From the NCBI RefSeq assembly GCF_000152845.1, contig NZ_CH902584.1, positions 357,239 to 421,238 of the forward strand: 64,000 bases of DNA, given 5' to 3'. The notes beneath the pieces were generated by a model. The model was not told the origin of the DNA, searched no databases, and saw nothing but the letters and a program-made list of their open reading frames with translations. The stretch is from Roseovarius sp. 217. GTDB taxonomy: Bacteria; Pseudomonadota; Alphaproteobacteria; Rhodobacterales; Rhodobacteraceae. This document shows, in pieces, positions 31,062 through 50,543 of the stretch. A program made the position numbers and the translations under genes. Every line of letters starts with the position of its first letter. The first letter of the stretch is position 1.

Positions 31062-31370
31062 TTATCCTCCTGTGAAAACGGTGAACTCACCCAAGTTGAC
31101 GACACCCCCCAGCGCGCACATGTCACCGATGCGGATCGCTGGAAGCTTTTGAATGAGAACGGTCATTGACCCCTTAGCCAGCGGATGCGGCGACGGCACG
31201 GGTCCCGCCGGCGTGGCCGTTGCGCCCATCACCATGTCGGTAACTCGCGCTGCGGGCCGTTTGGCGACAAGCACGGTCAGCGCGCAGACCGGCATGATCG
31301 GCATTGGAGACCCCAGCGTGCAAACACCGATATGCGTATCACCGACACGGGCCTGTGGGGGTCCAGGCAT
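31062..31370 (-). CDS. PAAR-domain spike-tip protein
   Basis: PAAR proteins form the sharp zinc-bound cone on the VgrG spike. The 102-aa protein has the repeating pattern ARVGDTHIG, AARVTDMVMG and AIRIGDMCALGG, with metal ligands expected at H13, C17, H62 and C84 by position in the fold. There is no C-terminal toxin extension, so cargo would have to bind non-covalently. Its start overlaps the DUF6931 gene stop (TGATG), making a vgrG-DUF6931-PAAR tip cassette. Confidence 0.9.
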   Translation of the reverse strand: MPGPPQARVGDTHIGVCTLGSPMPIMPVCALTVLVAKRPAARVTDMVMGATATPAGPVPSPHPLAKGSMTVLIQKLPAIRIGDMCALGGVVNLGEFTVFTGG

Positions 31371-31993
31371 CAGTCGCCTCCTTCCAGTGAAACGGGTTCA
31401 GGGGGCGGCGGCTCAGTGATCTTATCGATCCTGCCATTTCCGCCGCGGGCCACGTTGACCGCTCGGTCAATAATGAGCTGCAATTGCAACAGCGGGATCT
31501 TGGCGGTGCCAAGCGTCGTCATGTTCATGCCAAGGGCACAGGCCGCAACCGCCCCCGGTGGGGCTGCCATTTTTGACAGATCGCCAATGCCCAGGCTGCC
31601 CCCGGCGTAAAGCGCGGCGGTAGCGACCAGCACAGTGTCGTCATCCGGATCGGCTGTATCGAGTGCAATCTGCACCTTCTCGCGGTTGGCATCATTTGGC
31701 TCAAACACCCATGCCTCCGACGCTTTGAGGCTAGGCGTCCCGGGGTTGTCACCGCAGATATCGCGCGCAGCAAGACAAGCCCACCAGACCGCCTCGCGGT
31801 CCGGCAGGGCCGCAGACAGCATCCGCAAGACGCAGACCCAAGCCTTTTGCGCTCCCAGCTCTTCCAAAACAGCCTCGACCGGGGCACTGGCGGGTGTCTT
31901 GAGCTTTGTATCCAGCTTGATGCGCTTTGCGGCGAGCAGACGCATCGCGGGCTCACGCGGCACTTTCTTAAGATCTGAAAACCGTTTTTTCAT
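31370..31993 (-). CDS. DUF6931-like T6SS-associated protein between vgrG and PAAR
   Basis: The 207-aa soluble protein has a central helical region containing VCVLRMLSAALPDREAVWWACLAAR and ends in a proline-rich acidic tail (EPPPPEPVSLEGGD). I recall similar proteins next to PAAR genes under the name DUF6931, but cannot confirm this by search. The tight coupling to PAAR and its place directly after vgrG suggest a tip adaptor or chaperone role. No catalytic motif is visible. Confidence 0.65.
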   Translation of the reverse strand: MKKRFSDLKKVPREPAMRLLAAKRIKLDTKLKTPASAPVEAVLEELGAQKAWVCVLRMLSAALPDREAVWWACLAARDICGDNPGTPSLKASEAWVFEPNDANREKVQIALDTADPDDDTVLVATAALYAGGSLGIGDLSKMAAPPGAVAACALGMNMTTLGTAKIPLLQLQLIIDRAVNVARGGNGRIDKITEPPPPEPVSLEGGD

Positions 31994-32003
31994 GAACGTG
32001 CCC

Positions 32004-34136
32004 TCAATTGATCATCGTGATCCCGCCCTTAAGGACAAGCAGGCCGTCCCCTTTGACGGTCGTCATGGGCGCCTTGGCTTCCATCATAGCGGTGCCCTCG
32101 ATCTTTATAATCATGCCCTTTATGGTCACGCCGGTCTGATCGATCTTGATTGAGCTGCTGCCGACTTTCAATTCGATTTCCTGCATCGCCTCTTCCTTGA
32201 TCGACCCCAGCGCAGTCTTGAGGCTGTAGTTTCCCATGCTTACCGTGACTGCCTCGTTGCCCTTGGCCACCTTTCGGGTAAGGTTACCGGTATCGACATT
32301 CTGCACAAAGTTTCCGGTCTTGACCTGCTGCTTCGTGTCACCGGTGATAGTTTGCGTCGCTTTTCCCTCGATCGTCTCGGTATGGTCGGTCTTGATAAAG
32401 ACCTCCTGGTTTCCCGTCTCGACCTTGAACACGTGATCACCGGTCTTGATGGTTTCGGTCTTGTGGCGGTGGATCGTCTGGGTCAGGTCGCCCTTATCCT
32501 TATGCTCCAAGCCGATTGTCACGGTCGCGTTGTTCTTGATCGTCTGTATATAGTCTCTCTCGGACTGGAAGCGGACGAATTCCGCTTCTTTCTTGTCATC
32601 AAAGATTAGCTCATTGAAGGTTTGAGCGCTGCCATCCTTGGTCGAGCGCGTAACGATCCCGCTCTGCGTCTCGTTGGCCGGCAGTTCGTAGGGAGGCATC
32701 GTATCCGCATTGTACAACATTCCGGTGCAGATCGGCCTGTCAGGGTCGCCTTCTTCAAATTGGATCGCGACCTCCTGCCCGATCCGAGGGATAGAGATCA
32801 TGCCCCAGTTCTTGCCTGTCCAAGGCATCACGCAGCGCACCCAGCACGTGGTGTTCTCGTCCTTCTTGCCCGCCCTGTCCCAATGGAACTGCACCTTTAT
32901 GCGTCCATACTTGTCCGTATAGATTTCCTCGCCCGCTGGACCGGTCACGACTGCGGTCTGCAACCCGGGAATGCGCGGCCAACGGGTTTCTTGCGGCGCG
33001 CGAAACGGCTCTGATTTGGGGATGACATCAAAGGTGATCCTGTAGGTGTCCTTGTTGTCCTCGTCGACCGGGATCGTAGTGTTGAACAATGGTTTCTTGG
33101 TTTCCTGATCCTCATAGTCGGTTTCGATCTGCAACCGATGCTCTGCTCGGACCACAAGATATTCGATATTGACGCTCGTGCGTGTATGGCCCTTGAGCTT
33201 GAAGGTTTGACCGGCGCCCAGCGTCCGAACGTTGCCCGCCCCGCGCGCCAATTTATGCTGGACCGCCTCGGCCTGCATCCGGACCTTGGCAAAATTGGCG
33301 GGCTGATTGCCCAGACGCATATGCCCGGGATAGCGGTAGTGTTCGTATTTCTTGTGCGAGTGCTTACCTTTTTCAATTGAAGAGACCGCCTGCAATTCGG
33401 CGCGCGGTTTTTCAAAATCGTAGTCCTTCAGGGTTACTTTGCCAGTCACGACGCTGGTGTTGTGCGCCCAGTCGAAGATGTGATCGGATTTCCGACGGTA
33501 CTCGGACTCCTTGAAATAGAAATCTAGGTCTGGCCCTGTGGTATTGGGCTTATGCGCCGCGATGCCGTCGGCCAGCACCATTTTCAGCTCTTTGTTCCCT
33601 TGCCCAGCCTGTACAAAGAAATAATAGATCCCTTCTTCTTCCATCAACCGGCTGATGAAGTCGAAATCGGTTTCATGATACTGCACGCAGTAGATGCGTT
33701 TGTCGTAGGTCTCTGTCAGTTTATTGATCTGCCCGGTGAAACCATACTCGTCCAGAACGAGTTTGATGATTTCGGGCACAGTCTTGTCCTGAAAAATCCG
33801 GCTTTCGTAGGTTCGATCCAGGAACCATAGCCACGGCCGCACTTCCGCCACGAAATGCATCATGCCTTGGTACACGCCGACATATTCAACCGCTGTGCAC
33901 GTGCCGGTGAAATACCGGCTCTCGTCCTTGTCGTCCTTCAGCCCAAGATGAATCGTCTTGCCCAGCATTTCCTGCAGATCAAGCTCAACGTTGGAGGACA
34001 CAAATTCAACTGTCGTCTCCGTAAGAAAGCTCAGCCCCTCGATCACCCGCGCGTTCTTGAGGTTGACCGGTTTGCAGGTATAGTCCCCCTCCATCCAGAC
34101 AAGCCGGTTTTCAAGATCGATCTCTGTATTTGCCAT
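32004..34136 (-). CDS. vgrG: T6SS spike protein VgrG (TssI)
   Basis: The 710-aa protein has the gp27-like base (MHFVAEVRPWLWFLDRTYESRIFQ, YCVQYHETDFDFISRLMEEEG), the gp5-like OB fold (DKYGRIKVQFHWDRAGK, WVRCVMPWTGKNWGMISIPRIGQEV, FEEGDPDRPICTGMLYN) and a C-terminal beta-helix of short repeats (TKQQVKTGNFVQNVDTGN, SSIKIDQTGVTIKG). It ends with the helix and carries no added effector domain. It is the only VgrG in the window and probably works with the PAAR protein encoded 0.6 kb downstream. Confidence 0.97.
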   Translation of the reverse strand: MANTEIDLENRLVWMEGDYTCKPVNLKNARVIEGLSFLTETTVEFVSSNVELDLQEMLGKTIHLGLKDDKDESRYFTGTCTAVEYVGVYQGMMHFVAEVRPWLWFLDRTYESRIFQDKTVPEIIKLVLDEYGFTGQINKLTETYDKRIYCVQYHETDFDFISRLMEEEGIYYFFVQAGQGNKELKMVLADGIAAHKPNTTGPDLDFYFKESEYRRKSDHIFDWAHNTSVVTGKVTLKDYDFEKPRAELQAVSSIEKGKHSHKKYEHYRYPGHMRLGNQPANFAKVRMQAEAVQHKLARGAGNVRTLGAGQTFKLKGHTRTSVNIEYLVVRAEHRLQIETDYEDQETKKPLFNTTIPVDEDNKDTYRITFDVIPKSEPFRAPQETRWPRIPGLQTAVVTGPAGEEIYTDKYGRIKVQFHWDRAGKKDENTTCWVRCVMPWTGKNWGMISIPRIGQEVAIQFEEGDPDRPICTGMLYNADTMPPYELPANETQSGIVTRSTKDGSAQTFNELIFDDKKEAEFVRFQSERDYIQTIKNNATVTIGLEHKDKGDLTQTIHRHKTETIKTGDHVFKVETGNQEVFIKTDHTETIEGKATQTITGDTKQQVKTGNFVQNVDTGNLTRKVAKGNEAVTVSMGNYSLKTALGSIKEEAMQEIELKVGSSSIKIDQTGVTIKGMIIKIEGTAMMEAKAPMTTVKGDGLLVLKGGITMIN

Positions 34137-34165: not shown

Positions 34166-34453
34166 CTATGCTTCTGTTTCTATCAGACTTCTGGTTTCAC
34201 GCAGTCGGTTGATGATGCCCGGGTGAATGCCCCACAACGCGCCAAGGTTGAAATGGTCGCCCAGCAGACGTTTCGACTCAAAGACGTCCTCAAAATAAAC
34301 GCAGAGTATAGGCTTGGGAAACTCACCATCTGCGAGCAGGATCTGGTCCAGATACGTATCGCCCTTCAACAGGTAATACGACTTTCGCGCGATCGCTACG
34401 ATAATGATCGGCGGCTCTTCGGGTTCGGGTGGCCCAATCAACGCATTCATCAT
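34166..34453 (-). CDS. Small unknown protein between fused sheath-like gene and vgrG
   Basis: A 95-aa product that I do not recognise. It starts MMNALIGPPEPEEPPIIIVAIARKSYYLL; the sequence reads ATGATGA at the junction, so start and upstream stop overlap and either ATG (34453 or 34450) may be used. The middle is a mix of hydrophobic strands and acidic residues (ILCVYFEDVFESKRLLGD). No signal peptide or membrane helix. Coupling to the sheath-like fusion and position before vgrG suggest a small structural adaptor; this is inference from context only. Confidence 0.6.
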   Translation of the reverse strand: MMNALIGPPEPEEPPIIIVAIARKSYYLLKGDTYLDQILLADGEFPKPILCVYFEDVFESKRLLGDHFNLGALWGIHPGIINRLRETRSLIETEA

Positions 34454-37400
34454 AATCCCTCCAGCATGGCGGCGAGCTCCGGATCCATATCGCCGTCATT
34501 GCCTGTGTCGTCCCCAGCGTCAGCTCCGATATGGTCGAATCCCGCAAGTAAATCGTCAAGCGACGAATCTTCAGACTCCTCTAAAACCGGCAGTTCCATT
34601 TCTATATCCGCTGCCGGTGCATCCGGAGCGGCGCGCGGTGCCGGTGTCGCTCCCGACCAAGGGCCCGAGATCTCTTCACCGTCGAGCGCGCGGAACGACC
34701 CAAGCCTGATTTCGTCGCGGCCCTTGACCCAGATCACAGGCATGAAGCCCCGAGCCAAGGTGTGCTGCGCCAGATCAGTCGTCAGGTTCCGTTCGGTACA
34801 GGGAAGCGCCACCTGGTCGCCAAACCGATCCGTGACGAAATGAAACGGAATGTCCCCCAGCGACATGACACTGCCCAAATCCATCGCTGCACCGTCTTTC
34901 TTGTACGTCGCAGCCAACAGAATGGCCACCAAAACCGCCGGGTTTGCCCACAACATGCCTTTCAGCCCCTCTACCTGACTGAATTCTTCAAACGCAAAGG
35001 AGTCGATGGGTTCAGTTTTCGCACCGTAGGGTCGGCGCAAAAGGAAACGTGGCGACGCTAGTCCCAGATAGGCAGCCTCGCGACGCGCACGCAGATTGTC
35101 CCAAGCCTTCGCCACCAGGGGGTGGCGGTCCTGCTTTTCCACATCCAGATAGGCAGGGGTCACGGCGGTAAAAAATGGTGCGTCCACATGGGCCGCAACC
35201 TGGCCGATCCGGGCCAGCAACTCCGCATGCGGCGGCGTTTCTTCGAAGGTGTAAAGCCCGAACAGCGCCGAAAATCCGCCAGCGCCTTCTTCGGGATCCA
35301 ACACGTCTGTAAGCAGCCGGAAGATACCGCTTTCTGCCAGATCCTCTGACGCCGCGAGATCGGCGGCAAGCTCTTCGGCTGAGACATCATAGAGAACGAT
35401 CTGCAGGTCGCTGTTCGTCTCGATCCGTCGCGCCAGCAGGTCGAGTGAACGCCACTGCGCCTCCACCGCCTGAAAATCCGGATGGTGCAGAACAAGCCGC
35501 ATCGCCGTGCTGAGCGCCTGATCCACTGCGTCTGCAAGCGCCCCGGCCCCGGCATCGGGTGCCTTGACGACATGCGGGCCTACAATCTGTGCGATCAGGT
35601 CATCCGCCGGTCCCATCTTGGACAACCTGCCGGACGTGTCGCCGATCAGCGACTGGAATTCGCTCAGCTTCATATGCGCCGGGATCGATGTGGCCCCGGA
35701 CCGCTTGGGCAGACGGATCGGCGTGCCATAAGCCTCGGCCCAGTCCTTGAGCCGCTGCGCCGCTTTCTCGACCATGGAGCCCATGCCAAGCTGCTGGCGG
35801 AGCCCAGAAATCTCGCCGAAAATCCCGAGCTTCTCGTAAATTGCATCCGGGTGCAGATCATCTATCTCGGACAGTTCTACCGAGACACTGCCGCCATTCT
35901 TACCGATGGGTAGGGTCAGAGTAGTGGCAAAGCCTTCGATCACCTCGTCCAGCGTATCGACATCCAGAATGACGGGCTGGCGCGCGGCCATCGCATCGCC
36001 GGTTTCGATAGCACCGCGTGCCGCACGACCGGTAAAGTCGCCGAAGAAGGCCATCCTGAACCCGTTCCGGTTCAACGCATCGCGTTCGGGCCGCGCGGCG
36101 CTAATGGTGCCGAACGGCGACTGCGGCGGCGGGCTATCCGCAGTAGCATTGCCTAGGTCTGTCCGGGGATGATCCCCCGCATCCCCATCCAGATCGGCCA
36201 ACATGGCGTCCAGATTGTCCAGCTCGTTATCTGCGACCGTCGGATGGGTTTCTGCTACAGCTGAGACGTCCAGATCGTCGAGCAAATCGTCCAGAATGTC
36301 CGACACCTCATCTGCGGTCCCATCCAGTTCCGGTTCCGCAGCTTCCATCCCAGCCGACAGACCATCAAGATCGTCAACCGTTGGCTCGTCCTCGGCACCT
36401 GCCTCAGCCTGCGTCAGAAAGCCTTCTAGGTCATCGGTCTTGGTGGCCATTGTTTCCGCATTGGCGGGGCCTTCCAGATCGGCTAGGAGGTCCGCAAAAT
36501 CGTCCGGTACGTCGGTATCAATCCGATCCGGCTCTGGCGTCTCCATATCTGCCAGCAAAACGCCAAGGCCGTCGGGTGTGGCGGGGACCGAAGCCTCGCC
36601 CGAAGAGTCGCCAAAGTCGGAAAGCAAAGCGTCGAAGTCATCCAGATCTTGCACTTGCGCGTCCATGTTTTCGGCAACTGACTGAGGCTCCGCCAGCAAC
36701 GCATCCAGATCGATGTTGTCGGTGGGCGTCGTCGCCTCCACGGCCGAGCTCTCCAGAACGGCCAACATATCATCAAGATCGTCCAAGGCCGTTGCAGGGT
36801 CCGCCATGTCGGTCGCGGCAGGTATGTCATCGGGTGACAGCTCATTGGGGGCGGGAACCGTGTTGTCGTGAAGGCCCGCGAGAATGTCCTTCGTGTCCTC
36901 TTGGACCTCGGTTTCGGGGGTCGCCCTGATCCCTGAAAGTACCGCATCGGACGACGCCGTCGACACCTCAGCGATTTCGGGCAGTTCAAGCGCATCGAGT
37001 ATGTCGTCGATCGCATCCGCCTGTGCTGCCGATGCGACGGAGGCGATCCCAGACAGCACGTTACCGGTGTCGTTTTCTGCGGTCTCAGGCTCTACTACGG
37101 GTTCTATACCCGAGAAGATACTGTCGAGATCGTCTTCCGGCGCAATCTCAGCCACCCGGTCGATGGCAGAAAGCACGTCCGCAGCACTGTCTTCTCCAAC
37201 CTCTTCAGCGTCAGCTACGGGCGTAAGGCCCGACAAGACGGCAACGGTCTGGGACTCCGGTTCCGTCTCCGGCACGCGGGCGATGGCGTACAGAATATCG
37301 TTGCTGGTCGCTCGCGGCGGCGGTGCATCTTCCGCGTACTCTGCAAGGGCCGATAACACGTCTGCCGTCGAATCCAGATCCTCCGGCGTTTCGATCCGAG

Positions 37401-38160
37401 TAATGCCGGACAAAACATCGCCGGCAGTGTCCGTCTCAGGCGATTGTATCATCTCAGCCACACGCAATCCGGTCAAGGCTGCCGATACGTCGTCCTGCTC
37501 TTCCGGCTCGGGCGCAGGCCCTAGGGAGTTGAGCGCATCCGCCACGGATGTGTCCGGCGGTGCATCGACCGGGGCCTGCGCCGCCAAATTCGCTAGGGTG
37601 TCGTCAGTGGTGTCTTCCGGTCCATCCAATGCAGAAATCGGCGCGCGCAGCGACTCAAGCGCCGCCTGCCTGTCATCCGACGATGTCCCGGTGCCAGTCA
37701 GCGCCTGCAACAGACCTGGCTGCGCGAGCAGCTGCTCGATCAGCGCCTCGGCACCGGCCTTGCCGTCCATATAGGCCATCAGATCTGTCAGCTGCCTACG
37801 CGCCTCCAGCAGCGGGCGAAGCGGATCGAACTGTTCGGCAATTCCTTGCGGCGTGAAATCGGACATCTTTTTGAAAGTCAGATCGACCGCGAGCGATCCC
37901 TCACCGGTTAGGCTGTTAGGCACGCTAAATTGCGCCCTGGGTGCCATCGCCCGCATCCGGTTATCGAAATTGTCGACGTCGATTTCCAGAAAGCTGCGAT
38001 CAGCCACGGGAGGTTGCTCCGAGGTGCCCGACAGATCCGACAGCACGCCCATCACAAAGGGAAGTTGTACCTTCTTCTCGGCACCGTAAAGTTCCACGTC
38101 ATATTCGATCTGCACGCGCGGTGCGCGGTTGCGCGCGATAAATTTTTGACTGTCGCTCAT
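34450..38160 (-). CDS. TssB - acidic repeat spacer - TssB/TssC-like fusion protein
   Basis: The 1236-aa protein begins with a near copy of the TssB encoded at 50544 (shared KFIARNRAPRVQIEYDVELY and IDVDNFDNRMRAMAPRA; residues about 5-150). A very acidic spacer follows (about 165-690) with two classes of short repeats. From about 699 comes a second TssB-type module (FRMAFFGDFTGRAARG, DDLHPDAIYEKL), then a TssC-like part (LHHPDFQAVEAQWRSL near 890; SPRFLLRRPYGAKTEPIDSF near 1040). The C-terminal portion of normal TssC is missing and replaced by an acidic tail. Complete tssB and tssC genes exist elsewhere in the operon, so this is an extra sheath-like protein, perhaps a cap or baseplate connector. 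It is coupled by ATGA to the channel gene. Confidence 0.85.
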   Translation of the reverse strand: MSDSQKFIARNRAPRVQIEYDVELYGAEKKVQLPFVMGVLSDLSGTSEQPPVADRSFLEIDVDNFDNRMRAMAPRAQFSVPNSLTGEGSLAVDLTFKKMSDFTPQGIAEQFDPLRPLLEARRQLTDLMAYMDGKAGAEALIEQLLAQPGLLQALTGTGTSSDDRQAALESLRAPISALDGPEDTTDDTLANLAAQAPVDAPPDTSVADALNSLGPAPEPEEQDDVSAALTGLRVAEMIQSPETDTAGDVLSGITRIETPEDLDSTADVLSALAEYAEDAPPPRATSNDILYAIARVPETEPESQTVAVLSGLTPVADAEEVGEDSAADVLSAIDRVAEIAPEDDLDSIFSGIEPVVEPETAENDTGNVLSGIASVASAAQADAIDDILDALELPEIAEVSTASSDAVLSGIRATPETEVQEDTKDILAGLHDNTVPAPNELSPDDIPAATDMADPATALDDLDDMLAVLESSAVEATTPTDNIDLDALLAEPQSVAENMDAQVQDLDDFDALLSDFGDSSGEASVPATPDGLGVLLADMETPEPDRIDTDVPDDFADLLADLEGPANAETMATKTDDLEGFLTQAEAGAEDEPTVDDLDGLSAGMEAAEPELDGTADEVSDILDDLLDDLDVSAVAETHPTVADNELDNLDAMLADLDGDAGDHPRTDLGNATADSPPPQSPFGTISAARPERDALNRNGFRMAFFGDFTGRAARGAIETGDAMAARQPVILDVDTLDEVIEGFATTLTLPIGKNGGSVSVELSEIDDLHPDAIYEKLGIFGEISGLRQQLGMGSMVEKAAQRLKDWAEAYGTPIRLPKRSGATSIPAHMKLSEFQSLIGDTSGRLSKMGPADDLIAQIVGPHVVKAPDAGAGALADAVDQALSTAMRLVLHHPDFQAVEAQWRSLDLLARRIETNSDLQIVLYDVSAEELAADLAASEDLAESGIFRLLTDVLDPEEGAGGFSALFGLYTFEETPPHAELLARIGQVAAHVDAPFFTAVTPAYLDVEKQDRHPLVAKAWDNLRARREAAYLGLASPRFLLRRPYGAKTEPIDSFAFEEFSQVEGLKGMLWANPAVLVAILLAATYKKDGAAMDLGSVMSLGDIPFHFVTDRFGDQVALPCTERNLTTDLAQHTLARGFMPVIWVKGRDEIRLGSFRALDGEEISGPWSGATPAPRAAPDAPAADIEMELPVLEESEDSSLDDLLAGFDHIGADAGDDTGNDGDMDPELAAMLEGL
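36180..37480 (-). repeat. Two degenerate acidic repeat families in the fusion protein spacer
   Basis: Protein-level repeats are visible. The first class (nt about 36880-37480) has about eleven copies of a core such as DVLSGI, DVLSAL, NVLSGI or DILAGL spaced 20-33 residues. The second class (nt about 36180-36800) has about nine copies of cores such as LDDMLAVLE, FADLLADLE and LDAMLADLD. Both are amphipathic short helices in an acidic, otherwise low-complexity context. Confidence 0.8.
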
Positions 38161-39077
38161 TCCTCACCTCCACGCGCCTTGCGCAGTTCATCCCGCAACG
38201 CTCGGATTTCCTCGTGCAAAGCGTTCACCTGCGCGCCGACTTGATCGGTCTCTTTGCGCACCAGAGTGCGCAGCGTCTCGAACTCCGCCTCGGTCTCCTC
38301 TTCCACCGCTGATTGCATTGTGTTGACCAGCAGACCGATAAACAGATTGAGGACTGAAAAAGCGGTGATCACGATAAAGGGCACAAAAAAGGCCCAAGCC
38401 ATCGGATAGACCTCCATTACCGGTCGAACAATTCCCATCGACCAGCTTTCCAGAGTCATGATTTGGAATAGAGAGTACAGACTTCGCCCTAGCGTACCAA
38501 ACCATTCGTCAAACGAGTTGCCGTACATGATCGTCGCCATCACAGCAAAGACGTAGAACACGATCGAGATCATGATGATGACCGCACCCATGCCTGGCAG
38601 CGCATCCAACAAAGCCTGAACCACCGCGCGCATCTGCGGAATCACCGACAACAGGCGCATCGCGCGGATCACCCGCAGCCCACGCAGCGCCGACATGCTG
38701 TCGGTCTGCGGCAATAGTCCGATGCTCACCACGCAGAAATCAAAGATGTTCCACGAATTTCGAAAGAACTTCAGCCCGTAGGCATAGAGCTTGATCAGCA
38801 ATTCCAACACGAAGATGACCAGCACCACCCTGTCAATCGTATACAGAAAATCACCGATATGGGCCTGCATATAGTCCGATGTGCTCAGGCCCAGAGTGAT
38901 GGCGTTAAAGATGATGACGCCCATGATGAAAGTCTGCACCGAGGGCCGCTCGACGAACCTGCGCAATCGGGCGCGGAAGTAGGGATCCCGCTCCTTGCCC
39001 AAAGTCGTTCCATCACCTGTCCCCTCGGCGGCGCCGGGCACCTCAGACTGCTCATGGATCGACGCGTCGCTCGACAT
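38157..39077 (-). CDS. Voltage-gated sodium channel (NavBac/NaChBac family) inside the T6SS operon
   Basis: The 306-aa protein has the one-domain six-helix plan: S1 near 48-65, S2 82-99, S3 110-121, S4 with regularly spaced arginines R132, R135, R138 and R141 (LRGLRVIRAMRLLSVIP), S5 162-184, pore with selectivity filter TLESWS (208-213), S6 228-253, then a cytoplasmic coiled coil (to 304). The TLESWS filter is the NaChBac/NavAb sodium signature. The N-terminus is longer than usual. The stop overlaps the start of the sheath-like fusion (ATGA) and its start overlaps the previous gene by one base, so it is translated as part of the T6SS operon. A T6SS role is unknown to me. Confidence 0.93.
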   Translation of the reverse strand: MSSDASIHEQSEVPGAAEGTGDGTTLGKERDPYFRARLRRFVERPSVQTFIMGVIIFNAITLGLSTSDYMQAHIGDFLYTIDRVVLVIFVLELLIKLYAYGLKFFRNSWNIFDFCVVSIGLLPQTDSMSALRGLRVIRAMRLLSVIPQMRAVVQALLDALPGMGAVIIMISIVFYVFAVMATIMYGNSFDEWFGTLGRSLYSLFQIMTLESWSMGIVRPVMEVYPMAWAFFVPFIVITAFSVLNLFIGLLVNTMQSAVEEETEAEFETLRTLVRKETDQVGAQVNALHEEIRALRDELRKARGGEE

Positions 39078-40090
39078 TACTTTACCTTTCTAGCCGCTTC
39101 GTTGAATTTCTTGCTGACAATCTTGACCGACTTTACCGCATCAGCCACCGCCTTGTCCTTGTTCTTATGCTCGTTGCCGAAACGCGTCGCCCAGTTCTTG
39201 GCCGCAGAACCAGTCGATTTTCCGCCCTTGACGAACGCAATCGTCTCGTCAAGGGCCTTCTCGTAGGTGTCGATAGTGCCTGACAACTTGACCAGCGACG
39301 CATTAACCTTGCCCGACTTCGAGATCATCTTACCGATGTCCTGCAACGCCGGATCGGCTTTGGTGTCGGTCGCCATCTTCGCACCCTTGGTCAGCAGGAA
39401 ATTGGCCACGTCCTTGGTGGACTTGGCAGTCCCGTCGTACTCCTTCCTGACTTTGTCCAGAGCTGCGGCGGACTTCTTGAACGCCTCTTGCGCTGCCTCA
39501 TCGCCTGACTTCTCAATCTCCACGCCAAGCGTGTAGACGGCTTTCACTACCTGGCTGGTCAGTTTCGAGAACATGCCAGATGTGTCGAGCGTATCGAATT
39601 TCTTCAGCGCTTCCTTGCCCGCAGCCAGTGCATTCTTGTTGTCACCCTTGTCGCTCTCGACTTCGTCCAGCGCGACCGAAACCTTGTCCTCTATCTGACC
39701 GGACATTTTCTTGAACAGCTTTTTTACCTGCGCCTCGGCATCATCGAGCGCCTTCTTCTCGTCTGGCGTCTCGTCCTTGTCGTTGCGCTGGAATTTGGCC
39801 TTTTTGCGCTCTTTGGGTCGGGCATTCAGGATATCCTTTTCCAACGCCCCCAGAACGGTCGCGAAAAGTGACAGCTCATAGCGGGCGACGGCATAGATAC
39901 CGTCCTCGATCACTTTCTTCTTCCACTTTCGCGGATCAAGCTCCATCGTCCGCTTGAAAGTCAGATCGGTCACCCCACTCTCGGCGCCGGGCCGCGCCCG
40001 GAACCAGTCAGGGGGCTTCTTGGTCTTAGTCTCTCCGAACGGATTGATCTTGCGCTCGACGCTGATCTTGGTCTTTCCAACATCTGCCAT
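39077..40090 (-). CDS. Lys-rich helical protein of unknown function in the T6SS operon
   Basis: The ATG at 40090 (ribosome-binding site AGAGGA) gives 337 aa; a GTG three codons earlier is too close to that site. I do not recognise a family. The N-terminus is polar (KTKISVERKINPFGETKTK), followed by a long mostly helical region rich in Lys and Asp/Glu (KKAKFQRNDKDETPDEKKALDDAEAQ) and a basic end. No signal peptide or strong membrane segment. It is coupled to the channel gene by a one-base overlap. It could be an effector, a helper of the upstream helical protein, or a structural part; none can be chosen from sequence. Confidence 0.75.
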   Translation of the reverse strand: MADVGKTKISVERKINPFGETKTKKPPDWFRARPGAESGVTDLTFKRTMELDPRKWKKKVIEDGIYAVARYELSLFATVLGALEKDILNARPKERKKAKFQRNDKDETPDEKKALDDAEAQVKKLFKKMSGQIEDKVSVALDEVESDKGDNKNALAAGKEALKKFDTLDTSGMFSKLTSQVVKAVYTLGVEIEKSGDEAAQEAFKKSAAALDKVRKEYDGTAKSTKDVANFLLTKGAKMATDTKADPALQDIGKMISKSGKVNASLVKLSGTIDTYEKALDETIAFVKGGKSTGSAAKNWATRFGNEHKNKDKAVADAVKSVKIVSKKFNEAARKVK

Positions 40091-40158
40091 TGTGTTCACA
40101 TCCTCTTTGTAGGGGTTTGCCTAATTGGGCAGAACCACAAATCAGCCCACCTGCCCGC

Positions 40159-41406
40159 TCAGGCCACGTCGAAGAAAGTGCCGTCGATGGCCTTACTGCT
40201 GATCTTATCAAAGGCATAACCACCCACCGCGCCACCCAAGCCCATGCCCAGATCCTTGGCCGTCGTCGCAACCGAATTTCCATCAATGGGGGCTAGGGCC
40301 AGCGAGGCGAACTTGAGCCCCTCACGAAACACTTTAAGCGCCTTTGGGTCCTTCATCGACAGTTGCTTGACCCTGATCTTGAGCGTTTTGACCGGCACCT
40401 TCCACTTGACCGTTTCGGCATACATCTTCTGCACATCGCCGATCGCATCCGTGACTTTGACGTAATTGGCCCCCAGCGCATCATCGAGCTGTTTTTCGAT
40501 CACCTTGCGCTGCGCAGTCTTGTTGGGTGCGGGGTGGCTCTTCAACCGATTGTCCACATCTCTCATGAACTCTTTTTTCATCTTGTCCTGTTGCGCGAGG
40601 ATTTTGTTGAGCACCTTGCTCAGCTCATGCACCTTGACCACGATCTGCGCATATTTGGCGCTCAGCGTGTCAGCAGCCCCCTCAGTGGACTTGATCGTGG
40701 GCTGCGATATGCCGACGAATTCGTTAAAGACCGCGCCTGATATCTCGTTCGCCGCATAAACCCCAGACTTCTTCGCTGCCGTTTCAACGACCTTGAGGTT
40801 CAGCTCGACCACCTTCTTGGCGGCATCAATGGAAATTGCAATCTTGCCGATCTCGGTCGCCAGAGTGACGCCGGACTTCACGAAACCGATGATGCCCAAT
40901 GCGGCTCCGGCCCCACCCGAGAAAGGCGAGGTCGCCATCGCCGCAATCGACACCGCTAGCCCCGCAAGTGTGCCCACGATGGTGGTGGCGATCTTGATTC
41001 TGAACTTCGACCATTCCTTCCTTTTCTTCTGCAGGCTGGCCCAAGCCTTCGCGACCTGGATCTCCGCCGCTTTCTCGGCCACCTTGACGTCGTTCTTTAT
41101 CGCATTGTTCAACCCGTCGAGCTGCTTTTTCAGATCGGACTTGCTTGCCCCCTTGGAGACCATTTCAAGGAAACCCTTGTCGAACACCTTGCATTTCTGT
41201 TCGATCGTCTTGACGGTCTGGTCGTAGACCTCCATCGCCGCATTCTGGAATTCTTGGATCAACAGCGGGTCCTTCTCCGCCCCCTTCTCCATCTTCTTGT
41301 CCAACTCGACCACTACCTTGAAGCTAAGCGCAGGGGGTTTTACCATCCTTAGCCCCGAGACATTGATCTCGACGTTCTTCTTATCCATCACTGTATGCTT
41401 GGTCAT
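40159..41406 (-). CDS. Helical protein with central hydrophobic hairpin, candidate pore-forming effector
   Basis: The 415-aa product has a strong ribosome-binding site (GGAGGA) and directly follows clpV. It is dominated by long amphipathic helices with many lysines. A hydrophobic segment at about 139-195 (ATTIVGTLAGLAVSIAAMATS, a glycine-rich turn, ALGIIGFVKSGVTLATEI) could fold as a membrane hairpin. This layout of long helices around a hydrophobic hairpin is like alpha-pore-forming toxins of the ClyA/Hbl type, but there is no sequence match I can name. There is also a small hydrophobic glycine patch near the C-terminus (GMGLGGAVGGYAFD). No signal peptide, so release through the T6SS would be required if it is a toxin. 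Confidence 0.7.
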   Translation of the reverse strand: MTKHTVMDKKNVEINVSGLRMVKPPALSFKVVVELDKKMEKGAEKDPLLIQEFQNAAMEVYDQTVKTIEQKCKVFDKGFLEMVSKGASKSDLKKQLDGLNNAIKNDVKVAEKAAEIQVAKAWASLQKKRKEWSKFRIKIATTIVGTLAGLAVSIAAMATSPFSGGAGAALGIIGFVKSGVTLATEIGKIAISIDAAKKVVELNLKVVETAAKKSGVYAANEISGAVFNEFVGISQPTIKSTEGAADTLSAKYAQIVVKVHELSKVLNKILAQQDKMKKEFMRDVDNRLKSHPAPNKTAQRKVIEKQLDDALGANYVKVTDAIGDVQKMYAETVKWKVPVKTLKIRVKQLSMKDPKALKVFREGLKFASLALAPIDGNSVATTAKDLGMGLGGAVGGYAFDKISSKAIDGTFFDVA

Positions 41407-41439: not shown

Positions 41440-44175
41440 TCAATCGAAGCTGTAGATGAATTCGCCGTCAACAACGTCGATGGCTACCTTCTCAACCTTG
41501 TTGCCCTCCATCATCCGACGCAGGAATTCGGCCGAGATGTCGGGCAGCATCGTGTTGGTCACGATCGCGTCGATCATCCGCCCGCCACTCTCCAGTTCCT
41601 GACACCGGTTAACGATCTCATCTACCACCGCATCGGAATACTCGAACGGCACACCGTGCGCTGCCGTCACACGCTTCTTGATCCGACCCAGCTGCAGCTT
41701 GGTGATTTCCGCAATCATGTGCGGGCTTAGCGGGTAATACGGGATAGCCACCAAACGCCCCAGCAGCGCCGGCGGAAACACCTTGAGCAACGGCTCGCGC
41801 AGGGCCTTGGCCATGCCTTCGGGTTCTGGCAGCAACTCGGGGTCCGAACACAGATCCATGATCAGCTCAGTGCCCGCGTTAGATGTCAACAAGATCAGCG
41901 TGTTCTTGAAATCAATCACCCGACCCTCGCCGTCCTCCATGACGCCCTTGTCGAATACTTGGAAAAATATCTCATGCACGTCCGGATGTGCCTTTTCCAC
42001 CTCGTCGAGTAGCACCACCGAGTAAGGCTTGCGCCGCACTGCCTCGGTCAGCACACCACCCTCGCCGTACCCAACATAGCCCGGCGGCGCACCCTTCAGC
42101 GACGACACAGTATGCGCCTCCTGATACTCCGACATGTTAATCGTGATCACATTCTGCTCGCCACCGTATAGTACTTCTGCCAGTGCCAACGCAGTTTCCG
42201 TCTTGCCAACGCCGCTGGTGCCCGCCAACAGGAACACGCCGATCGGTTTACTGGGGTTGTCGAGCCCGGCTCGGCTGGTCTGAATACGCTTGGCGATCAT
42301 CTTCATCGCGTGGTCCTGACCGATGACCCGGCGCGCTAGGTGTTGCTCCAGATTCAGTATTGTTTCGATCTCGTCCTTAACCATGCGTCCCACTGGAATG
42401 CCAGTCCAGTCGCCGACGACGTTGGCAACCGCCTGATGGTCCACGATGGGGAGGATCAGGGGGCTATCGCCCTGCTGCTCCACCAACTCGGCGTTCTTTG
42501 CCCTGAGCAGCGCCATCAACTCGGCGCGCTCAACGTCGCTCATCAGCGCAAGGCCCGCCTCCACCGACGCGGCCTCTGTCACGGCCAAACCCTGTGGCGG
42601 TTCGGCCTCATCCACCGGATGACCCGCGCCCCGTAGCTGCGCGCGCAGGCCAATTATCTCGGCAACCAAGGCCTTCTCGGCGTCCCAGTTCGCATTCAAT
42701 CCAGCCAGCCTAACCTCTTCCTCATTCTTGGCTTCGGTCACCGCAGCGCGGCGCTCATCCACATCGAAACCGGCGCTTTCATCGCGCCCGATGATGTCAA
42801 GCTCCGTGCTGAAGGCTTCGATCCTGCGTCGACTGTCATCGACCTGCGCGGGCACCGCGTGCTGACTGACAGCGACCCGCGCACAGGCGGTATCTAGCAG
42901 GCTGACCGACTTGTCCGGCAATTGTCGCGCTGGAATATATCGCGCAGACAAAGTCACTGCGGCCTCGATTCCCTCGTCCAGCACTTGGACTCTATGATGC
43001 TTCTCCAACATCCCGGTGATGCCGCGCATCATCATGATCGCCTTGGGGATACTCGGCTCTTGTACGTGAACGACCTGAAATCGGCGGGTCAGCGCAGGGT
43101 CTTTTTCAATGTATTTCTTGTACTCGGCCCATGTCGTCGCACCTATGGTCCGCAGCGTACCGCGCGCGAGCGCTGGCTTAAGCAGGTTCGCAGCATCACC
43201 GGTTCCGGCAGCCCCGCCCGCACCTACCAACGTATGTGTCTCGTCCACGAACATCACGATCGGTGTGGGTGAACCCTGCACCTCGTCGATCACTTGCCGC
43301 AATCGGTTCTCAAATTCGCCTTTCATGCTGGCACCCGCCTGCAACAGGCCGACATCCAACATCAAAAGCCGTACGTCTTTCAGCGCCGGGGGTACATCGC
43401 CCCGCGCGATACGTAATGCGAAACCCTCGACCACAGCGGTTTTGCCTACGCCCGCCTCGCCGGTGAGGATCGGGTTGTTCTGCCGCCGCCGCATCAAAAC
43501 GTCGACGATCTGCCTAATCTCCTCATCCCGACCAACGATCGGATCAATTTCGCCGTTGCGCGCCTGTTTGGTTAGGTCAGTGCAGAACTGATCCAACGCC
43601 TCTTGCTTGCCCATCTGCGACGGTGCCATGGCTCCCGATGCCTCGCCCGGTTCGGCCCCTCCGCCCGTCACCGATCCATCCTGTGGGCGCATCCGATCCT
43701 CGGGCGAGCCATCGGTTATCTTGTGAAAGTGCTCTGCCAGATCGTTTGACTTCACCCCGGCCAGCGTCGGCGAAATGCTGACGAGGGTATTGCGCAGGTT
43801 CGGTGTTTCAAGCATTCCGAGCAGGATATGCCCGGTCCGTACTTGGTTCGAGGAATAAAGGAGAGACCCCCAGACCCAGGCCCGTTCCATCGCATCCTCC
43901 AGATGCGACGACAGATCCGACACCGAACTCGCCCCGCGCGGCAGGTTGTCCAGCGCCCTCGTGATCTCAGTGGCGATCTTGCCCATGTCCAGATTGAAAT
44001 GGTCGATAATCCGGTGCAGGTCGCTATCCTGGTTGTTCAGGATCTGGTGGATCCAGTGCACGATCTCGACATAGGGGTTGCCGCGCATCTTGCAGAACAC
44101 CGTCGCCCCTTCGATGGCCTTGTAACCAAGGCTGTTCAGCTTGCCAAATAGCGCAACGCGGCTGATTTCCGTCAT
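41440..44175 (-). CDS. clpV: T6SS sheath-disassembly ATPase ClpV (TssH)
   Basis: ClpV is the AAA+ hexamer that disassembles contracted sheath. The 911-aa protein has an N-domain, a first AAA module with Walker A GEAGVGKTA (near 238) and MFVDETHTLVGAGGAAG, a coiled-coil middle domain, and a second AAA module with Walker A GTSGVGKTE (near 651) and VVLLDEVEKAHPDV. The GAGGAAGTGDAANLLKPALARG stretch is typical of ClpV rather than ClpB. It lies directly after tssG and before the unusual cassette of helical proteins and sodium channel. Confidence 0.96.
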   Translation of the reverse strand: MTEISRVALFGKLNSLGYKAIEGATVFCKMRGNPYVEIVHWIHQILNNQDSDLHRIIDHFNLDMGKIATEITRALDNLPRGASSVSDLSSHLEDAMERAWVWGSLLYSSNQVRTGHILLGMLETPNLRNTLVSISPTLAGVKSNDLAEHFHKITDGSPEDRMRPQDGSVTGGGAEPGEASGAMAPSQMGKQEALDQFCTDLTKQARNGEIDPIVGRDEEIRQIVDVLMRRRQNNPILTGEAGVGKTAVVEGFALRIARGDVPPALKDVRLLMLDVGLLQAGASMKGEFENRLRQVIDEVQGSPTPIVMFVDETHTLVGAGGAAGTGDAANLLKPALARGTLRTIGATTWAEYKKYIEKDPALTRRFQVVHVQEPSIPKAIMMMRGITGMLEKHHRVQVLDEGIEAAVTLSARYIPARQLPDKSVSLLDTACARVAVSQHAVPAQVDDSRRRIEAFSTELDIIGRDESAGFDVDERRAAVTEAKNEEEVRLAGLNANWDAEKALVAEIIGLRAQLRGAGHPVDEAEPPQGLAVTEAASVEAGLALMSDVERAELMALLRAKNAELVEQQGDSPLILPIVDHQAVANVVGDWTGIPVGRMVKDEIETILNLEQHLARRVIGQDHAMKMIAKRIQTSRAGLDNPSKPIGVFLLAGTSGVGKTETALALAEVLYGGEQNVITINMSEYQEAHTVSSLKGAPPGYVGYGEGGVLTEAVRRKPYSVVLLDEVEKAHPDVHEIFFQVFDKGVMEDGEGRVIDFKNTLILLTSNAGTELIMDLCSDPELLPEPEGMAKALREPLLKVFPPALLGRLVAIPYYPLSPHMIAEITKLQLGRIKKRVTAAHGVPFEYSDAVVDEIVNRCQELESGGRMIDAIVTNTMLPDISAEFLRRMMEGNKVEKVAIDVVDGEFIYSFD

Positions 44176-44176
44176 T

Positions 44177-45223
44177 TCATGTCCTTCCTGTCATTGTCGC
44201 CAGATGTATCTGGGCGTTCGGCTCCAGAAACAGGTTATCGGCATCTTTCTTGATCTTGTTCTCTCCGATCCAGCTGGTCTGACCCAGCCGCACCGTCTCG
44301 CCCAGCTTGGCGCGCGGTATTTCGTCGGCGCACAGCACCAAGTTCACATCCCAGTCCATCGCATCACCCGCGTAATTGCGCACGATGGCGCGCAGCCGTG
44401 GCAGAGACTCGCCGCCCGGCAGCAAGCGGATGTAATCGGACAGACTCAGTGGCCCCAGCCGCAGCCGGAACTTAGCCGAACGTGTCCAGACCCGCTCTCC
44501 AATCGAGGTTGTGCGCCCCAGCGCCGCTGGCACTCCCATTCGCCAGCGGTCATCTGGCTCCAGATACAGCCAGCAGCCGACAAATTCCTGCACCTGGACC
44601 TTCGTGCCAAAGAAGGCCTCGACGATGGACCGCAGACCCTCGGCGTTCTTCGGCCCTTGCGCGAGCAGCCCGGTAAAATGACGCTTGGCCAGATCTGGCA
44701 GGTCGTCCGATTTGCGTAAATGGGTCCCGTGATAGCCCGCTATGGCCGCGATCTTTCGTTCAATCCCGTCGTTGTTGCCGCGGTCGAAGCTCGGCGCGGG
44801 TTGTCCGGAACGCCAGGCACGGTAAAGCAATGTCATCAGCCGATGAGTCAGGATGTTCGCAAATTCCACGAAGGTCGGATCTCGGTGATGGCGCAACCGG
44901 GCGCGGGCATGTTCCGTCAGGTGCAGCGGTAGCGGCCCTTGCGGGCCGAACAGGCCGAAGAAGCGGTTGGTCAAACGCCCCGGCTTGCCGCCACGGGGCG
45001 GCGTGAACCCGGCCACAGTCGAAGGCGGAAACGACAGCTCAGCCTCTTGACCAAAACGCACCTTGTCCTCACGCGGGCGGCGCGCCTCCCCGAACCGGGG
45101 CGCGTCCGGAAACGCCGCTTCCAGTATCCGGAAAGCATGGAATATATGATGTTTTTCAGGGTCCTGACTCAGCCGCTCCAGATGCGTCAGAGGATCCGTC
45201 CCAGACCTGTCCGGGGGCGCCAT
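44177..45223 (-). CDS. tssG: T6SS baseplate protein TssG
   Basis: TssG forms the baseplate wedge with TssF and TssE. The 348-aa protein contains HIFHAFRILEAAFPDAPRFGEAR, then VRFGQEAELSFPPSTVAGF and GLFGPQGPLPLHLTEHARARL, the family hallmarks. The chosen ATG (45223) has a good ribosome-binding site (GGAGAG) and overlaps the tssF coding end by 37 bp, as is common for this pair. Only 1 bp separates it from clpV. Confidence 0.95.
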   Translation of the reverse strand: MAPPDRSGTDPLTHLERLSQDPEKHHIFHAFRILEAAFPDAPRFGEARRPREDKVRFGQEAELSFPPSTVAGFTPPRGGKPGRLTNRFFGLFGPQGPLPLHLTEHARARLRHHRDPTFVEFANILTHRLMTLLYRAWRSGQPAPSFDRGNNDGIERKIAAIAGYHGTHLRKSDDLPDLAKRHFTGLLAQGPKNAEGLRSIVEAFFGTKVQVQEFVGCWLYLEPDDRWRMGVPAALGRTTSIGERVWTRSAKFRLRLGPLSLSDYIRLLPGGESLPRLRAIVRNYAGDAMDWDVNLVLCADEIPRAKLGETVRLGQTSWIGENKIKKDADNLFLEPNAQIHLATMTGRT

Positions 45224-47070: not shown

Positions 47071-47568
47071 TCAGACGATCCTTTCCAGCTCAAGCTCTCC
47101 AGTCGTCACATCAACCTGGCTGCGCAGGTAAAGCTCCATTGGCATAGGTTGAGCCCACATGTCGGCGCGTATATCGAATGTCACGATGCTGCCGCCGCTT
47201 TCTTGGCCGACACGCAGCGCAACCGCGACAGAATCGGGATGTATTCGGGTCTCGAAGGTCCGTATTGCGCCGACGATGGATTTGCGGATCAACTCTGCAC
47301 GCTCGGCAGTGGAATAATCACCAGCCACTTCCCGGATACCGAAATTCAGCACCGACCGGGCCACGTTGGGATATTTGTCCACGTCGATCATGGTGCTGTT
47401 GTCCGAAGTATTCAGCAGCCAAGCTAAATCGCGCTGAATGATCTCGCGCAACTTGCGCAGGTCAATCACTCGATCCTCGCGCCGCTCGGTCTTTTCCGAC
47501 GGTCCCTGATCGGTCAGCCGGTCCAGAAGCGACGGTTGCAGCCGTTCGGATATCGTCCGGTCAGACAT
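47071..47568 (-). CDS. tssE: T6SS baseplate gp25-like protein TssE
   Basis: TssE is the gp25-like baseplate protein that starts sheath polymerisation. The start at 47568 (ATG) gives 165 aa with MSDRTISERLQPSLLDRL at the N-terminus; a longer frame starts with GTG inside tagJ and is less likely. The gp25 core shows LRKLREIIQRDLAWLLNT, YPNVARSVLNFGI and TFDIRADMWAQPMP. It overlaps the end of tagJ by 8 bp and is followed by tssF. Confidence 0.95.
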   Translation of the reverse strand: MSDRTISERLQPSLLDRLTDQGPSEKTERREDRVIDLRKLREIIQRDLAWLLNTSDNSTMIDVDKYPNVARSVLNFGIREVAGDYSTAERAELIRKSIVGAIRTFETRIHPDSVAVALRVGQESGGSIVTFDIRADMWAQPMPMELYLRSQVDVTTGELELERIV

Positions 47569-48379: not shown

Positions 48380-48403
48380 CGCGTTCTCCCTGGAAAATAA
48401 CCT

Positions 48404-48439
48404 CGTAAAGGCTGGCTCGATTGCGGGCCAGCCTTTACG
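48404..48439 (-). terminator. Strong hairpin after hcp (attenuator or partial terminator)
   Basis: A perfect 13-bp inverted repeat (CGTAAAGGCTGGC and GCCAGCCTTTACG) with a 10-nt loop lies between the hcp stop and the tagJ start. On the minus strand it is followed by AGGTTATTTTCC, only a loose T-rich tract. It probably acts as a partial terminator or a 3-prime stabiliser that allows high Hcp output while lowering downstream expression. Confidence 0.6.
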
Positions 48440-48460
48440 CATTTCTGCAAGGCACAAGGG

Positions 48461-50540: not shown

Positions 50541-50543
50541 CTG

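What the first reader, a model, noticed from the sequence alone, without database searches (positions are those of the whole stretch)
38157..39077. Voltage-gated sodium channel embedded and translationally coupled inside a T6SS operon
Seen: S4 with R132, R135, R138 and R141, filter TLESWS, and coiled-coil tail; ATGA overlap with the sheath-like gene and one-base overlap with the upstream unknown gene. Known: NavBac channels pass Na+ on depolarisation. Inference: the channel may link membrane potential or Na+ entry to T6SS firing, or protect against pore effectors that depolarise the membrane. I know of no described T6SS with such a subunit.
Basis: partly seen in the sequence, partly recalled or inferred. 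Interest (0 to 1): 0.9.

Follow-up and report, generated by a model that had tools for sequence, protein, structure and literature searches.

The report
Sodium channel built into bacterial weapon
A voltage-gated sodium channel gene sits inside the operon for a bacterial injection weapon (type VI secretion), and the same special branch of channel sits in the same slot in dozens of related bacteria, which suggests that these weapons may be wired to the electrical state of the cell membrane.

Summary
Window 38157-39077, minus strand, encodes a 306-aa NavBac channel with S4 arginines 132/135/138/141 and filter TLESWSM. It shares one base with the upstream gene and an ATGA with the sheath-like gene TssCL, inside a T6SS operon.

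It is no accident of one genome. Among 394 family genomes, all 36 channels of this type (own included) lie in T6SS loci. They form one clade, apart from the NavBacs these bacteria carry elsewhere. Sensor arginines and filter are invariant in 42 of 42 rows, and the C-terminal coiled coil is longer. Of 60 resolved T6SS loci, 39 have channel plus TssCL, 15 neither, 5 TssCL only, 1 channel only. The gene between TssH and the channel varies or is missing (14 of 41 distinct loci), which speaks against a simple immunity role. TssCL was described in 2022; my searches found no paper linking a sodium channel to a T6SS.

Best reading: a dedicated channel that couples membrane voltage or sodium entry to this T6SS through TssCL. 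The association is strong; the mechanism is inferred, without wet evidence.

The parts
38157..39077 (-). T6SS-embedded NavBac voltage-gated sodium channel, 306 aa
   Evidence: clade of 42 rows
38655..38684 (-). S4 voltage-sensor arginines R132, R135, R138, R141
   Evidence: each Arg in 42 of 42 T6SS rows and 69 of 69 other NavBac rows
38436..38456 (-). selectivity filter TLESWSM, residues 208-214
   Evidence: identical in 42 of 42 T6SS rows; TLESWxxG is stated as conserved in prokaryotic Na+ channels in PMC4225499 (passages)
38169..38303 (-). cytosolic neck and C-terminal coiled coil (residues 259-303), longer in this clade
   Evidence: median 52.5 residues after M254 against 39 in other NavBacs
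38157..38160 (-). ATGA overlap of channel stop and TssCL start
   Evidence: stop/start overlap with the TssCL-type ORF in 38 of 42 rows
39075..39079 (-). TAATG: one-base overlap of upstream gene stop and channel start
34450..38160 (-). TssCL: VipA-like domain, acidic repeat linker, second TssB-like part and VipB N-terminal domain, 1236 aa
   Evidence: VipA and VipB by profile, linker; second VipA part as described for the family in PMC9515649
34166..34453 (-). small ORF of 95 aa overlapping the end of TssCL (ATGA), kept in a subset of loci
   Evidence: tblastn match in 20 of 67 sequences (66 loci plus window)
39077..40099 (-). variable slot gene UB (U2), 340 aa, no known family
40159..41406 (-). 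variable slot gene UA (U1), 415 aa, with central hydrophobic stretches at about 139 and 165; candidate pore-forming effector
   Evidence: low-confidence helical model
41440..44175 (-). TssH (ClpV)
   Evidence: TIGR03345
44177..45223 (-). TssG
   Evidence: matching order and blastp to annotated loci
45187..47064 (-). TssF
47071..47586 (-). TssE
47561..48457 (-). TagJ/ImpE
   Evidence: PF07024
48461..48982 (-). Hcp
   Evidence: order as; blastp to the annotated Hcp of L050
49047..50540 (-). TssC
   Evidence: TIGR03355
50544..51077 (-). TssB
   Evidence: TIGR03358
51130..52152 (-). TssA
   Evidence: position and order only, as
32004..34136 (-). VgrG (TssI)
31370..31993 (-). DUF6931 protein
   Evidence: PF22011
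31062..31370 (-). PAAR protein
29507..31054 (-). TagH (FHA)
28138..29478 (-). TssK
26728..28113 (-). TssL with OmpA-type domain
   Evidence: TIGR03349/TIGR03350
23147..26731 (-). TssM
   Evidence: position and order only, as
22482..23147 (-). TagF
   Evidence: position and order only, as
21772..22485 (-). PppA-type phosphatase
   Evidence: position and order only, as
19228..21390 (+). PpkA-type Ser/Thr kinase
   Evidence: PF00069

Best explanation
It is a NavBac channel dedicated to one subtype of T6SS, an accessory part of the machine in the producing cell, working together with the sheath-like fusion protein TssCL made from the overlapping next gene. Proposed working: four copies form a voltage-gated Na+ channel in the inner membrane. 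When the membrane depolarises, for instance because a neighbour's pore-forming effector has struck, S4 moves, the pore opens and Na+ enters from the salty outside. The gating motion and/or the Na+ entry is passed through the lengthened four-stranded C-terminal coiled coil to TssCL, which then alters sheath assembly or firing. Shown here: channel family, intact voltage-sensor arginines and filter, purifying selection, location in T6SS loci only (within the genomes searched), one clade, near-fixed position and reading-frame overlap with TssCL, mostly joint presence and absence with TssCL, clade-specific residues in the S4-S5 linker, neck and coiled coil. Inferred: conduction, tetramer, contact with TssCL, direction of control. 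I put about 0.9 on 'dedicated T6SS-associated channel' and about 0.4 on the voltage/Na+ coupling mechanism; the score below is for the whole statement.
For: All 36 channels of this type (own included) among 394 family genomes lie in T6SS loci; the next 16 hits (E 4.8e-92 or weaker, 53-57% identity) are in 14 genomes without TssC and in 2 with TssC on another contig. 22 of 22 plasmid records with TssH of 80% identity or more carry the channel within about 1.5 kb of TssH by position, one of them a degraded copy (17 are Leisingera). The 42 T6SS rows form one clade, SH-aLRT 96. Arginines and filter 42 of 42; A155 42 of 42 against G in 68 of 69 others; V258 42 of 42 against H in 65 of 69. Coiled-coil positions 287, 291, 294, 298 are large hydrophobic in 42/42, 41/41, 39/39, 39/40 rows with a residue there, against 11/69, 4/48, 5/32, 2/14 in other NavBacs. 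Channel and TssCL: 39 both, 15 neither, 5 TssCL only, 1 channel only, of 60 resolved loci. The TssCL-type ORF can start at or before the channel's last base in 38 of 42 rows, and in 34 of 42 it begins with the conserved TssB-like sequence. dN/dS 0.096 against the nearest relative (one pair).
Against: No wet evidence. Five loci keep TssCL without the channel and one keeps the channel without a recognisable TssCL, so neither strictly needs the other. The phylogeny-aware test has only 2 independent pairs on well-supported branches (4 the other way round) and cannot reach significance. 15 of 60 loci of the same T6SS subtype lack both (one of them, L097, keeps a 105-aa TssCL-like fragment), so the machine can apparently be built without them. 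Seven channel-bearing rows have short TssCL forms without the first TssB-like part (L054, L059, L071, L078, L079, L084, L088). In the four annotated records opened, the annotated start of TssCL lies further downstream, so the overlap there rests on my reading of the open frame. Both structure models failed (pLDDT 43.5 and 30.0), so no contact could be assessed.
Confidence: 0.5

Rival explanations
1. Self-protection: the slot genes UA/UC (and UB) are pore-forming effectors, and the channel helps the producer or its kin survive the ion imbalance they cause, an immunity-like role.
For: UA and UC members mostly have central hydrophobic stretches. The UC profile matches ClyA-type pore-forming toxin structures (MakA and Nhe entries E=2.1e-4, Hbl L1 E=0.0028). 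Slot genes are in 27 of 41 distinct channel-bearing loci, and relatives of them by tblastn in 2 of 20 channel-less loci.
Against: 14 of 41 distinct channel-bearing loci have no slot gene; for those 14 genomes a UA profile found a relative elsewhere in only 2 (UB and UC profiles were not run). L093 keeps a UA-type and L089 a UB-type gene without the channel. A conserved channel is an odd immunity protein for three unlike gene families, and letting Na+ in would deepen depolarisation.
Confidence: 0.17
2. Passenger: a channel gene caught in a mobile T6SS island, co-inherited but without T6SS function.
For: These T6SS clusters often sit on plasmids (PMC4337385 passages), so genes can ride along; Navs are common in the family (71 of 84 genus genomes).
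Against: Same slot across the 36 genera of the survey, one clade not found elsewhere in 394 genomes, low dN/dS, clade-specific cytosolic tail, mostly joint presence with TssCL.
Confidence: 0.1
3. Cargo: the channel itself is delivered into target membranes, where it short-circuits the sodium gradient.
For: Ion-selective pore effectors of T6SS exist (Ssp6, Tse4, Tse5; starts of abstracts in listings); in seawater an inserted Na+ channel could be harmful.
Against: Only Ion_trans/PKD channel domains and no PAAR, VgrG or MIX-type part found by Pfam; the next gene is TssCL, not a small immunity-like gene, in nearly all rows; conserved rather than diversifying (dN/dS 0.096); S4 arginines fully kept.
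Confidence: 0.06
4. Local ion supply: the channel feeds Na+ (or sets local potential) for an energy-using step near the T6SS rather than acting as a sensor.
For: Intact Na+ filter and voltage sensor; ExbB/ExbD-type genes stand next to tssA in three opened relatives.
Against: No known Na+-driven T6SS step (recall); no ExbB/ExbD gene is annotated beside tssA in the Qingshengfaniella locus; the window's genes beyond tssA were not tested for this.
Confidence: 0.12

Closest known systems
NavBac family (NavMs, NavAb, NaChBac and kin)
   Same: Ion_trans fold family, S4 arginines, TLESWSM filter, coiled-coil tail
   Different: Forms its own clade, found only in T6SS loci in the genomes searched, longer coiled coil, own residues in S4-S5 linker and neck. 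A role recorded for a NavBac is motility, chemotaxis and pH homeostasis in an alkaliphilic Bacillus (Ito et al. 2004, seen only as a reference title in PMC4225499 and PMC7041947)
Roseobacter T6SS1 with TssCL (Suria et al. 2022, PMC9515649)
   Same: Same kind of T6SS with a TssB/TssC-type fusion, FHA, PAAR, impE
   Different: That paper's main text has no occurrence of 'channel', 'sodium' or 'ion trans' and its figure legend says genes without known T6SS function are grey 'other'; the figures and supplements were not seen
P. aeruginosa H1-T6SS tit-for-tat control (recalled; Basler 2013 seen only as a reference in PMC12169545)
   Same: A PpkA/PppA/TagF/FHA set stands here too (kinase by Pfam; the others by order); a membrane-damage sensor would fit the same slot in logic
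   Different: There the recalled sensor is TagQRST; I did not search the genome for TagQRST. A channel as sensor is not described in what I searched
ClyA-type alpha pore-forming toxins (MakA, Nhe, Hbl)
   Same: UC slot genes of relatives match by profile
   Different: UA, the window's own gene, gives no such match; only a weak colicin N hit E=0.017

Membership tests
NavBac voltage-gated sodium channel | six-transmembrane Ion_trans domain | tested here: met
   PF00520 E=4.5e-41 over 47-260; phmmer alignment to 5hvx over 36-272
NavBac voltage-gated sodium channel | repeated S4 arginines | tested here: met
   R132/135/138/141, 42 of 42 clade rows
NavBac voltage-gated sodium channel | Na+ filter TLESWxxG | tested here: met
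   TLESWSMG, 42 of 42; motif as stated in PMC4225499
NavBac voltage-gated sodium channel | C-terminal coiled coil | tested here: met
   heptad-spaced large hydrophobics 273, 280, 284, 287, 291, 294, 298; 277 is mostly Thr; judged by spacing, no coiled-coil program was run
NavBac voltage-gated sodium channel | homotetramer, voltage-gated Na+ current | not testable with these tools
   needs expression and patch clamp
T6SS accessory component | encoded inside T6SS operon, same strand, overlapping frames | tested here: met
T6SS accessory component | co-conserved with the T6SS and not found outside it | tested here: met
   36 of 36 in 394 family genomes; outside the family 0 of 14 genomes with a channel and TssC have them near each other (80 of 102 channel-bearing genomes given; draft contigs limit this)
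T6SS accessory component | needed for or modulates secretion | not testable with these tools
   needs deletion mutants
T6SS core component | present in all T6SSs of the subtype | tested here: not met
   20 of 60 resolved loci lack it
T6SS immunity protein | always paired with its cognate effector | tested here: not met
   no slot gene in 14 of 41 distinct loci; effectors elsewhere in the genome not excluded
ClyA-type pore-forming toxin (for window gene UA) | profile or fold match to the family | tested here: inconclusive
   no match for UA; UC in relatives matches; UA model pLDDT 43.5
TssCL sheath fusion (gene 34450-38160) | TssB-type and TssC-type domains in one protein besides separate TssB and TssC | tested here: met
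   VipA E=1.2e-58 and VipB E=2.8e-45; TssB and TssC at 49047-51077

The most novel reading that the evidence does not exclude
A contractile injection machine under electrical control: a dedicated voltage-gated sodium channel senses depolarisation of the producer's membrane and, through its long coiled coil and the sheath-like TssCL, triggers or brakes T6SS firing. It would be a bacterial excitation-contraction coupling, with pore-forming effectors on the other end of the fight.
Probability: 0.3. Interest if true: 0.95.

Novelty: new variant of a known kind. Interest (0 to 1): 0.82.

Why it matters
The physiological role of most bacterial sodium channels is open (my recall), although they are standard models for human Nav channels. 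Here one branch of them is tied to a defined machine in many genera, with a candidate partner protein, so the role becomes directly testable by deletion. If the channel controls firing, it would be the first secretion system known to me that is gated by membrane voltage, and it would explain how an attacked cell could sense a pore-forming strike at once.

Tried and rejected
Structure models: UA with 2 sequences (pLDDT 43.5) and TssCL residues 680-1236 with 2 sequences (pLDDT 30.0) were too poor, so no fold search was run. Relatives among viral contigs: none for UA or the channel. The genome-contig scan with UB gave one locus, Pseudosulfitobacter koreensis L046. Slot-gene identity: Pfam and NCBIfam give nothing convincing; UB profile hits are generic coiled coils. 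Considered and rejected: channel as obligatory immunity partner (14 of 41 distinct loci without slot gene), channel as chance insertion, channel as the ordinary family NavBac copy (separate clade; the own genome has another copy at C4:1379356). The association test by independent pairs had too few supported pairs to be significant. Both trees are quick searches with SH-aLRT only, no bootstrap. Rows dropped before counts: L005 (same place as L094) and L051 (degraded copy) from the channel alignment and tree; L050 equals L066, so 42 rows are 41 distinct channels; for the tree only 8 of 28 genus channels were used, for the column table all 28. Left out of the 60-locus table: L050 (duplicate), L051 (degraded), L080 (channel and TssCL present, TssH beyond the contig start), L099 and L112 (contig ends), L111 (TssC fragment without following T6SS genes), L113 (other T6SS type). 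21 of the 101 other TssC-bearing family genomes were not, but all 394 were.
Full report
What is there. The gene at 38157-39077 is on the minus strand and encodes a 306-residue NavBac channel. Pfam Ion_trans covers 47-260 at E=4.5e-41, and phmmer against the PDB gives 5hvx at 2.3e-78 and NavAb-type chains near 1e-69 (the names NavMs and NavAb for these entries are partly recalled). S4 has Arg at 132, 135, 138 and 141, and the filter is TLESWSM. The sequence shows TAATG at its start and ATGA at its end. The downstream gene (1236 aa) has a VipA domain (E=1.2e-58) and a VipB N-terminal domain (E=2.8e-45) joined by a long acidic linker. The rest of the operon holds T6SS genes; separate TssB, TssC, TssH, TssL and ImpE/TagJ are identified by profile, the others by matching order and mostly blastp to annotated plasmid loci. 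The genome also carries another NavBac copy (C4:1379356, 51% identity) and a weaker Ion_trans protein.

Is it one odd genome? No. In the genus, 71 of 84 genomes have some channel match, but only the window's genome and G044 have one of this type (75% identity). In PLSDB plasmids 39 records match; 21 do so at 69-76% and one more (52%) is a degraded copy. Four records opened show the same order: TssH, a hypothetical gene, 'ion transporter', TssC-like fusion, VgrG (with one small extra gene in Qingshengfaniella); the degraded one shows it from the hypothetical gene on. TssH of 80% identity or more occurs in 22 plasmid records, and all 22 have the channel about 1.5 kb away by position (two of these matches run across the record start; 17 of 22 are Leisingera). 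The 23rd record, at 79% (Rhodobacteraceae SC52), has no channel hit. The Peteryoungia channel at 47% is not in a T6SS.

Family survey. Of 394 genomes (393 genera), 102 have TssC. 80 of the 101 others were searched for the channel. Of the 58 with TssC at 71% identity or more, 35 have the channel in the T6SS locus, 20 do not, 2 end at a contig edge and 1 has only a TssC fragment. Of the 22 with other T6SS types none has a channel near the T6SS, the nearest being about 68 kb away (positions). A search of all 394 with the channel gives 36 hits at E 1.9e-97 or better, own included. All 36 are in T6SS loci (one, G347, on a contig that starts inside the operon). The next 16 hits listed (E 4.8e-92 to 7.9e-89, 53-57% identity) are in 14 genomes without TssC and in 2, G270 and G428, with TssC on another contig. 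So no channel of this type was found outside a T6SS. In 385 class genomes no hit beyond the own genome exceeds 56% identity. Of 102 channel-bearing genomes outside the family 80 were searched for TssC; 14 have it and none has the two near each other (several are drafts, so contig breaks could hide a case).

Phylogeny and residues. In a quick maximum-likelihood tree of 92 rows, the 42 T6SS rows (41 distinct) form one clade, SH-aLRT 96, apart from 49 other channels of the family and one Peteryoungia plasmid, with NavMs as outgroup (the 49 include Peteryoungia). In the column table (42 T6SS rows, 69 others) the four arginines and TLESWSM are invariant in the T6SS rows. Differences lie in the S4-S5 linker (Q148 41 of 42; A155 42 of 42 against G 68 of 69; D158 39 of 42), elsewhere in S4 and S5, and in the neck and tail (T253, V258, E259, F266, L269, E276). 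The tail is longer: median 52.5 residues after M254 against 39, with large hydrophobics kept at 287, 291, 294 and 298. Compared with P. koreensis (L046), the channel has dN/dS 0.096; TssCL 0.19, TssH 0.046 (one pair of species). So the protein is kept by selection, with a cytosolic part of its own kind.

Partner. In most of the 15, TssH is followed closely by VgrG; L097 keeps a 105-aa TssCL-like fragment and L100 the small ORF, which point to loss. On a TssH tree the channel needs 9 changes and TssCL 8; only 2 independent pairs lie on well-supported branches, so the joint change is suggestive, not proven. The TssCL-only loci L090, L092 and L098 form a separate group on that tree, which would fit TssCL being older in this operon than the channel, but the tree is unrooted. 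The TssCL-type ORF can start at or before the channel's last base in 38 of 42 rows, and 34 of 42 begin with the conserved TssB-like sequence there (the exceptions to overlap are L079, L085, L087, L088). In the annotated records the called start of TssCL is further downstream; the homology at the overlapping start argues that these calls are too short. TssCL was described by Suria et al. 2022 (PMC9515649) in 20 of 28 roseobacter reference genomes with this T6SS; I read sections 12 and 13 and ran a term search, which has no 'channel', 'sodium' or 'ion trans'.

Slot genes. Between TssH and the channel lie none (14 of 41 distinct loci, ORFs of 120 aa or more), one or two genes of three families: UA (15 genes, the window's 40159-41406), UB (13 genes, the window's 39077-40099) and UC (5 genes). 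Most UA and UC members have central hydrophobic stretches. The UC profile matches ClyA-type toxin structures (MakA and Nhe entries at 2.1e-4, Hbl L1 at 0.0028; no reversed or shuffled control was run); UA does not beyond a weak colicin N hit of the window protein (E=0.017). A UA profile finds a relative elsewhere in 2 of the 14 genomes that have the channel but no slot gene, and in 1 of 20 channel-less genomes, where it is the one in the L093 slot. Relatives of slot genes occur in 2 of 20 channel-less loci, against 27 of 41 with the channel, so slot genes and channel are associated, though neither needs the other. I read the slot genes as swappable candidate effectors.

Mechanism. The channel is most likely a dedicated accessory part of this T6SS in the producing cell, coupling voltage or Na+ entry to the machine through TssCL. 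The steps shown are sequence, place, clade, selection and co-occurrence. The steps inferred are conduction, tetramer, contact with TssCL and the sign of the control. T6SS effectors that depolarise targets are known (Ssp6, Tse4, Tse5; starts of abstracts in listings), so a depolarisation sensor beside a T6SS makes sense as an attack detector, and the operon carries a PpkA/PppA/TagF/TagH set that could pass on such a signal (for the kinase; the others by order). The rivals are given with their tests.

Literature. Searches for T6SS with sodium channel, NavBac, ion transporter, roseobacter, TssCL and membrane potential listed no paper whose title or abstract start links the two; lists were capped. 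The library holds open-licence PMC papers only. Papers looked into by term search: PMC9515649, PMC4337385, PMC3910702, PMC5014874, PMC11556119, PMC9113992, PMC4225499, PMC7041947, PMC8942018, PMC12169545.

Noticed in passing
window 34450-38160, about residues 200-680 of TssCL: Long acidic linker with about ten copies of a roughly 20-residue DVLSGI-type repeat and several LDxLLxxL (LD-motif-like) stretches; looks like an unfolded arm with many binding motifs.
   Followed up: partly
window 34166-34453, minus strand: Small 95-aa ORF sharing ATGA with the end of TssCL; related ORFs in 19 of 66 other loci, also in some without the channel and in L085 and L100 without TssCL.
   Followed up: partly
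L055, L068, L069, L081, L094 (slot between TssH and channel): UC-family slot genes resemble ClyA-type pore-forming toxins (MakA, Nhe, Hbl) by profile, E about 2e-4.
   Followed up: partly
window 60077-62974, plus strand: 965-aa protein with an HEIGH motif near the C-terminus and no Pfam match; may be a metallopeptidase-type T6SS effector.
   Followed up: no
window 55868-57391 minus; 54280-55839 plus: Caspase-domain protein and DUF4384 protein beside the T6SS; caspase-family or DUF4384 genes are also annotated beside the relatives' loci opened.
   Followed up: no
L047, L048, L049 upstream of tssA: ExbB/ExbD-type genes stand next to the T6SS in Leisingera, Phaeobacter and Ruegeria but none is annotated there in the Qingshengfaniella locus.
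   Followed up: no
L051 (Parasedimentitalea marina pW43D): Channel, TssCL, VgrG and kinase genes all appear split in this plasmid T6SS: the island may be decaying, or the sequence may hold frame errors.
   Followed up: partly
class-level genomes G658, G751, G828: Two NavBac-type genes in tandem on one contig in three relatives of one genus outside the family (positions).
   Followed up: no
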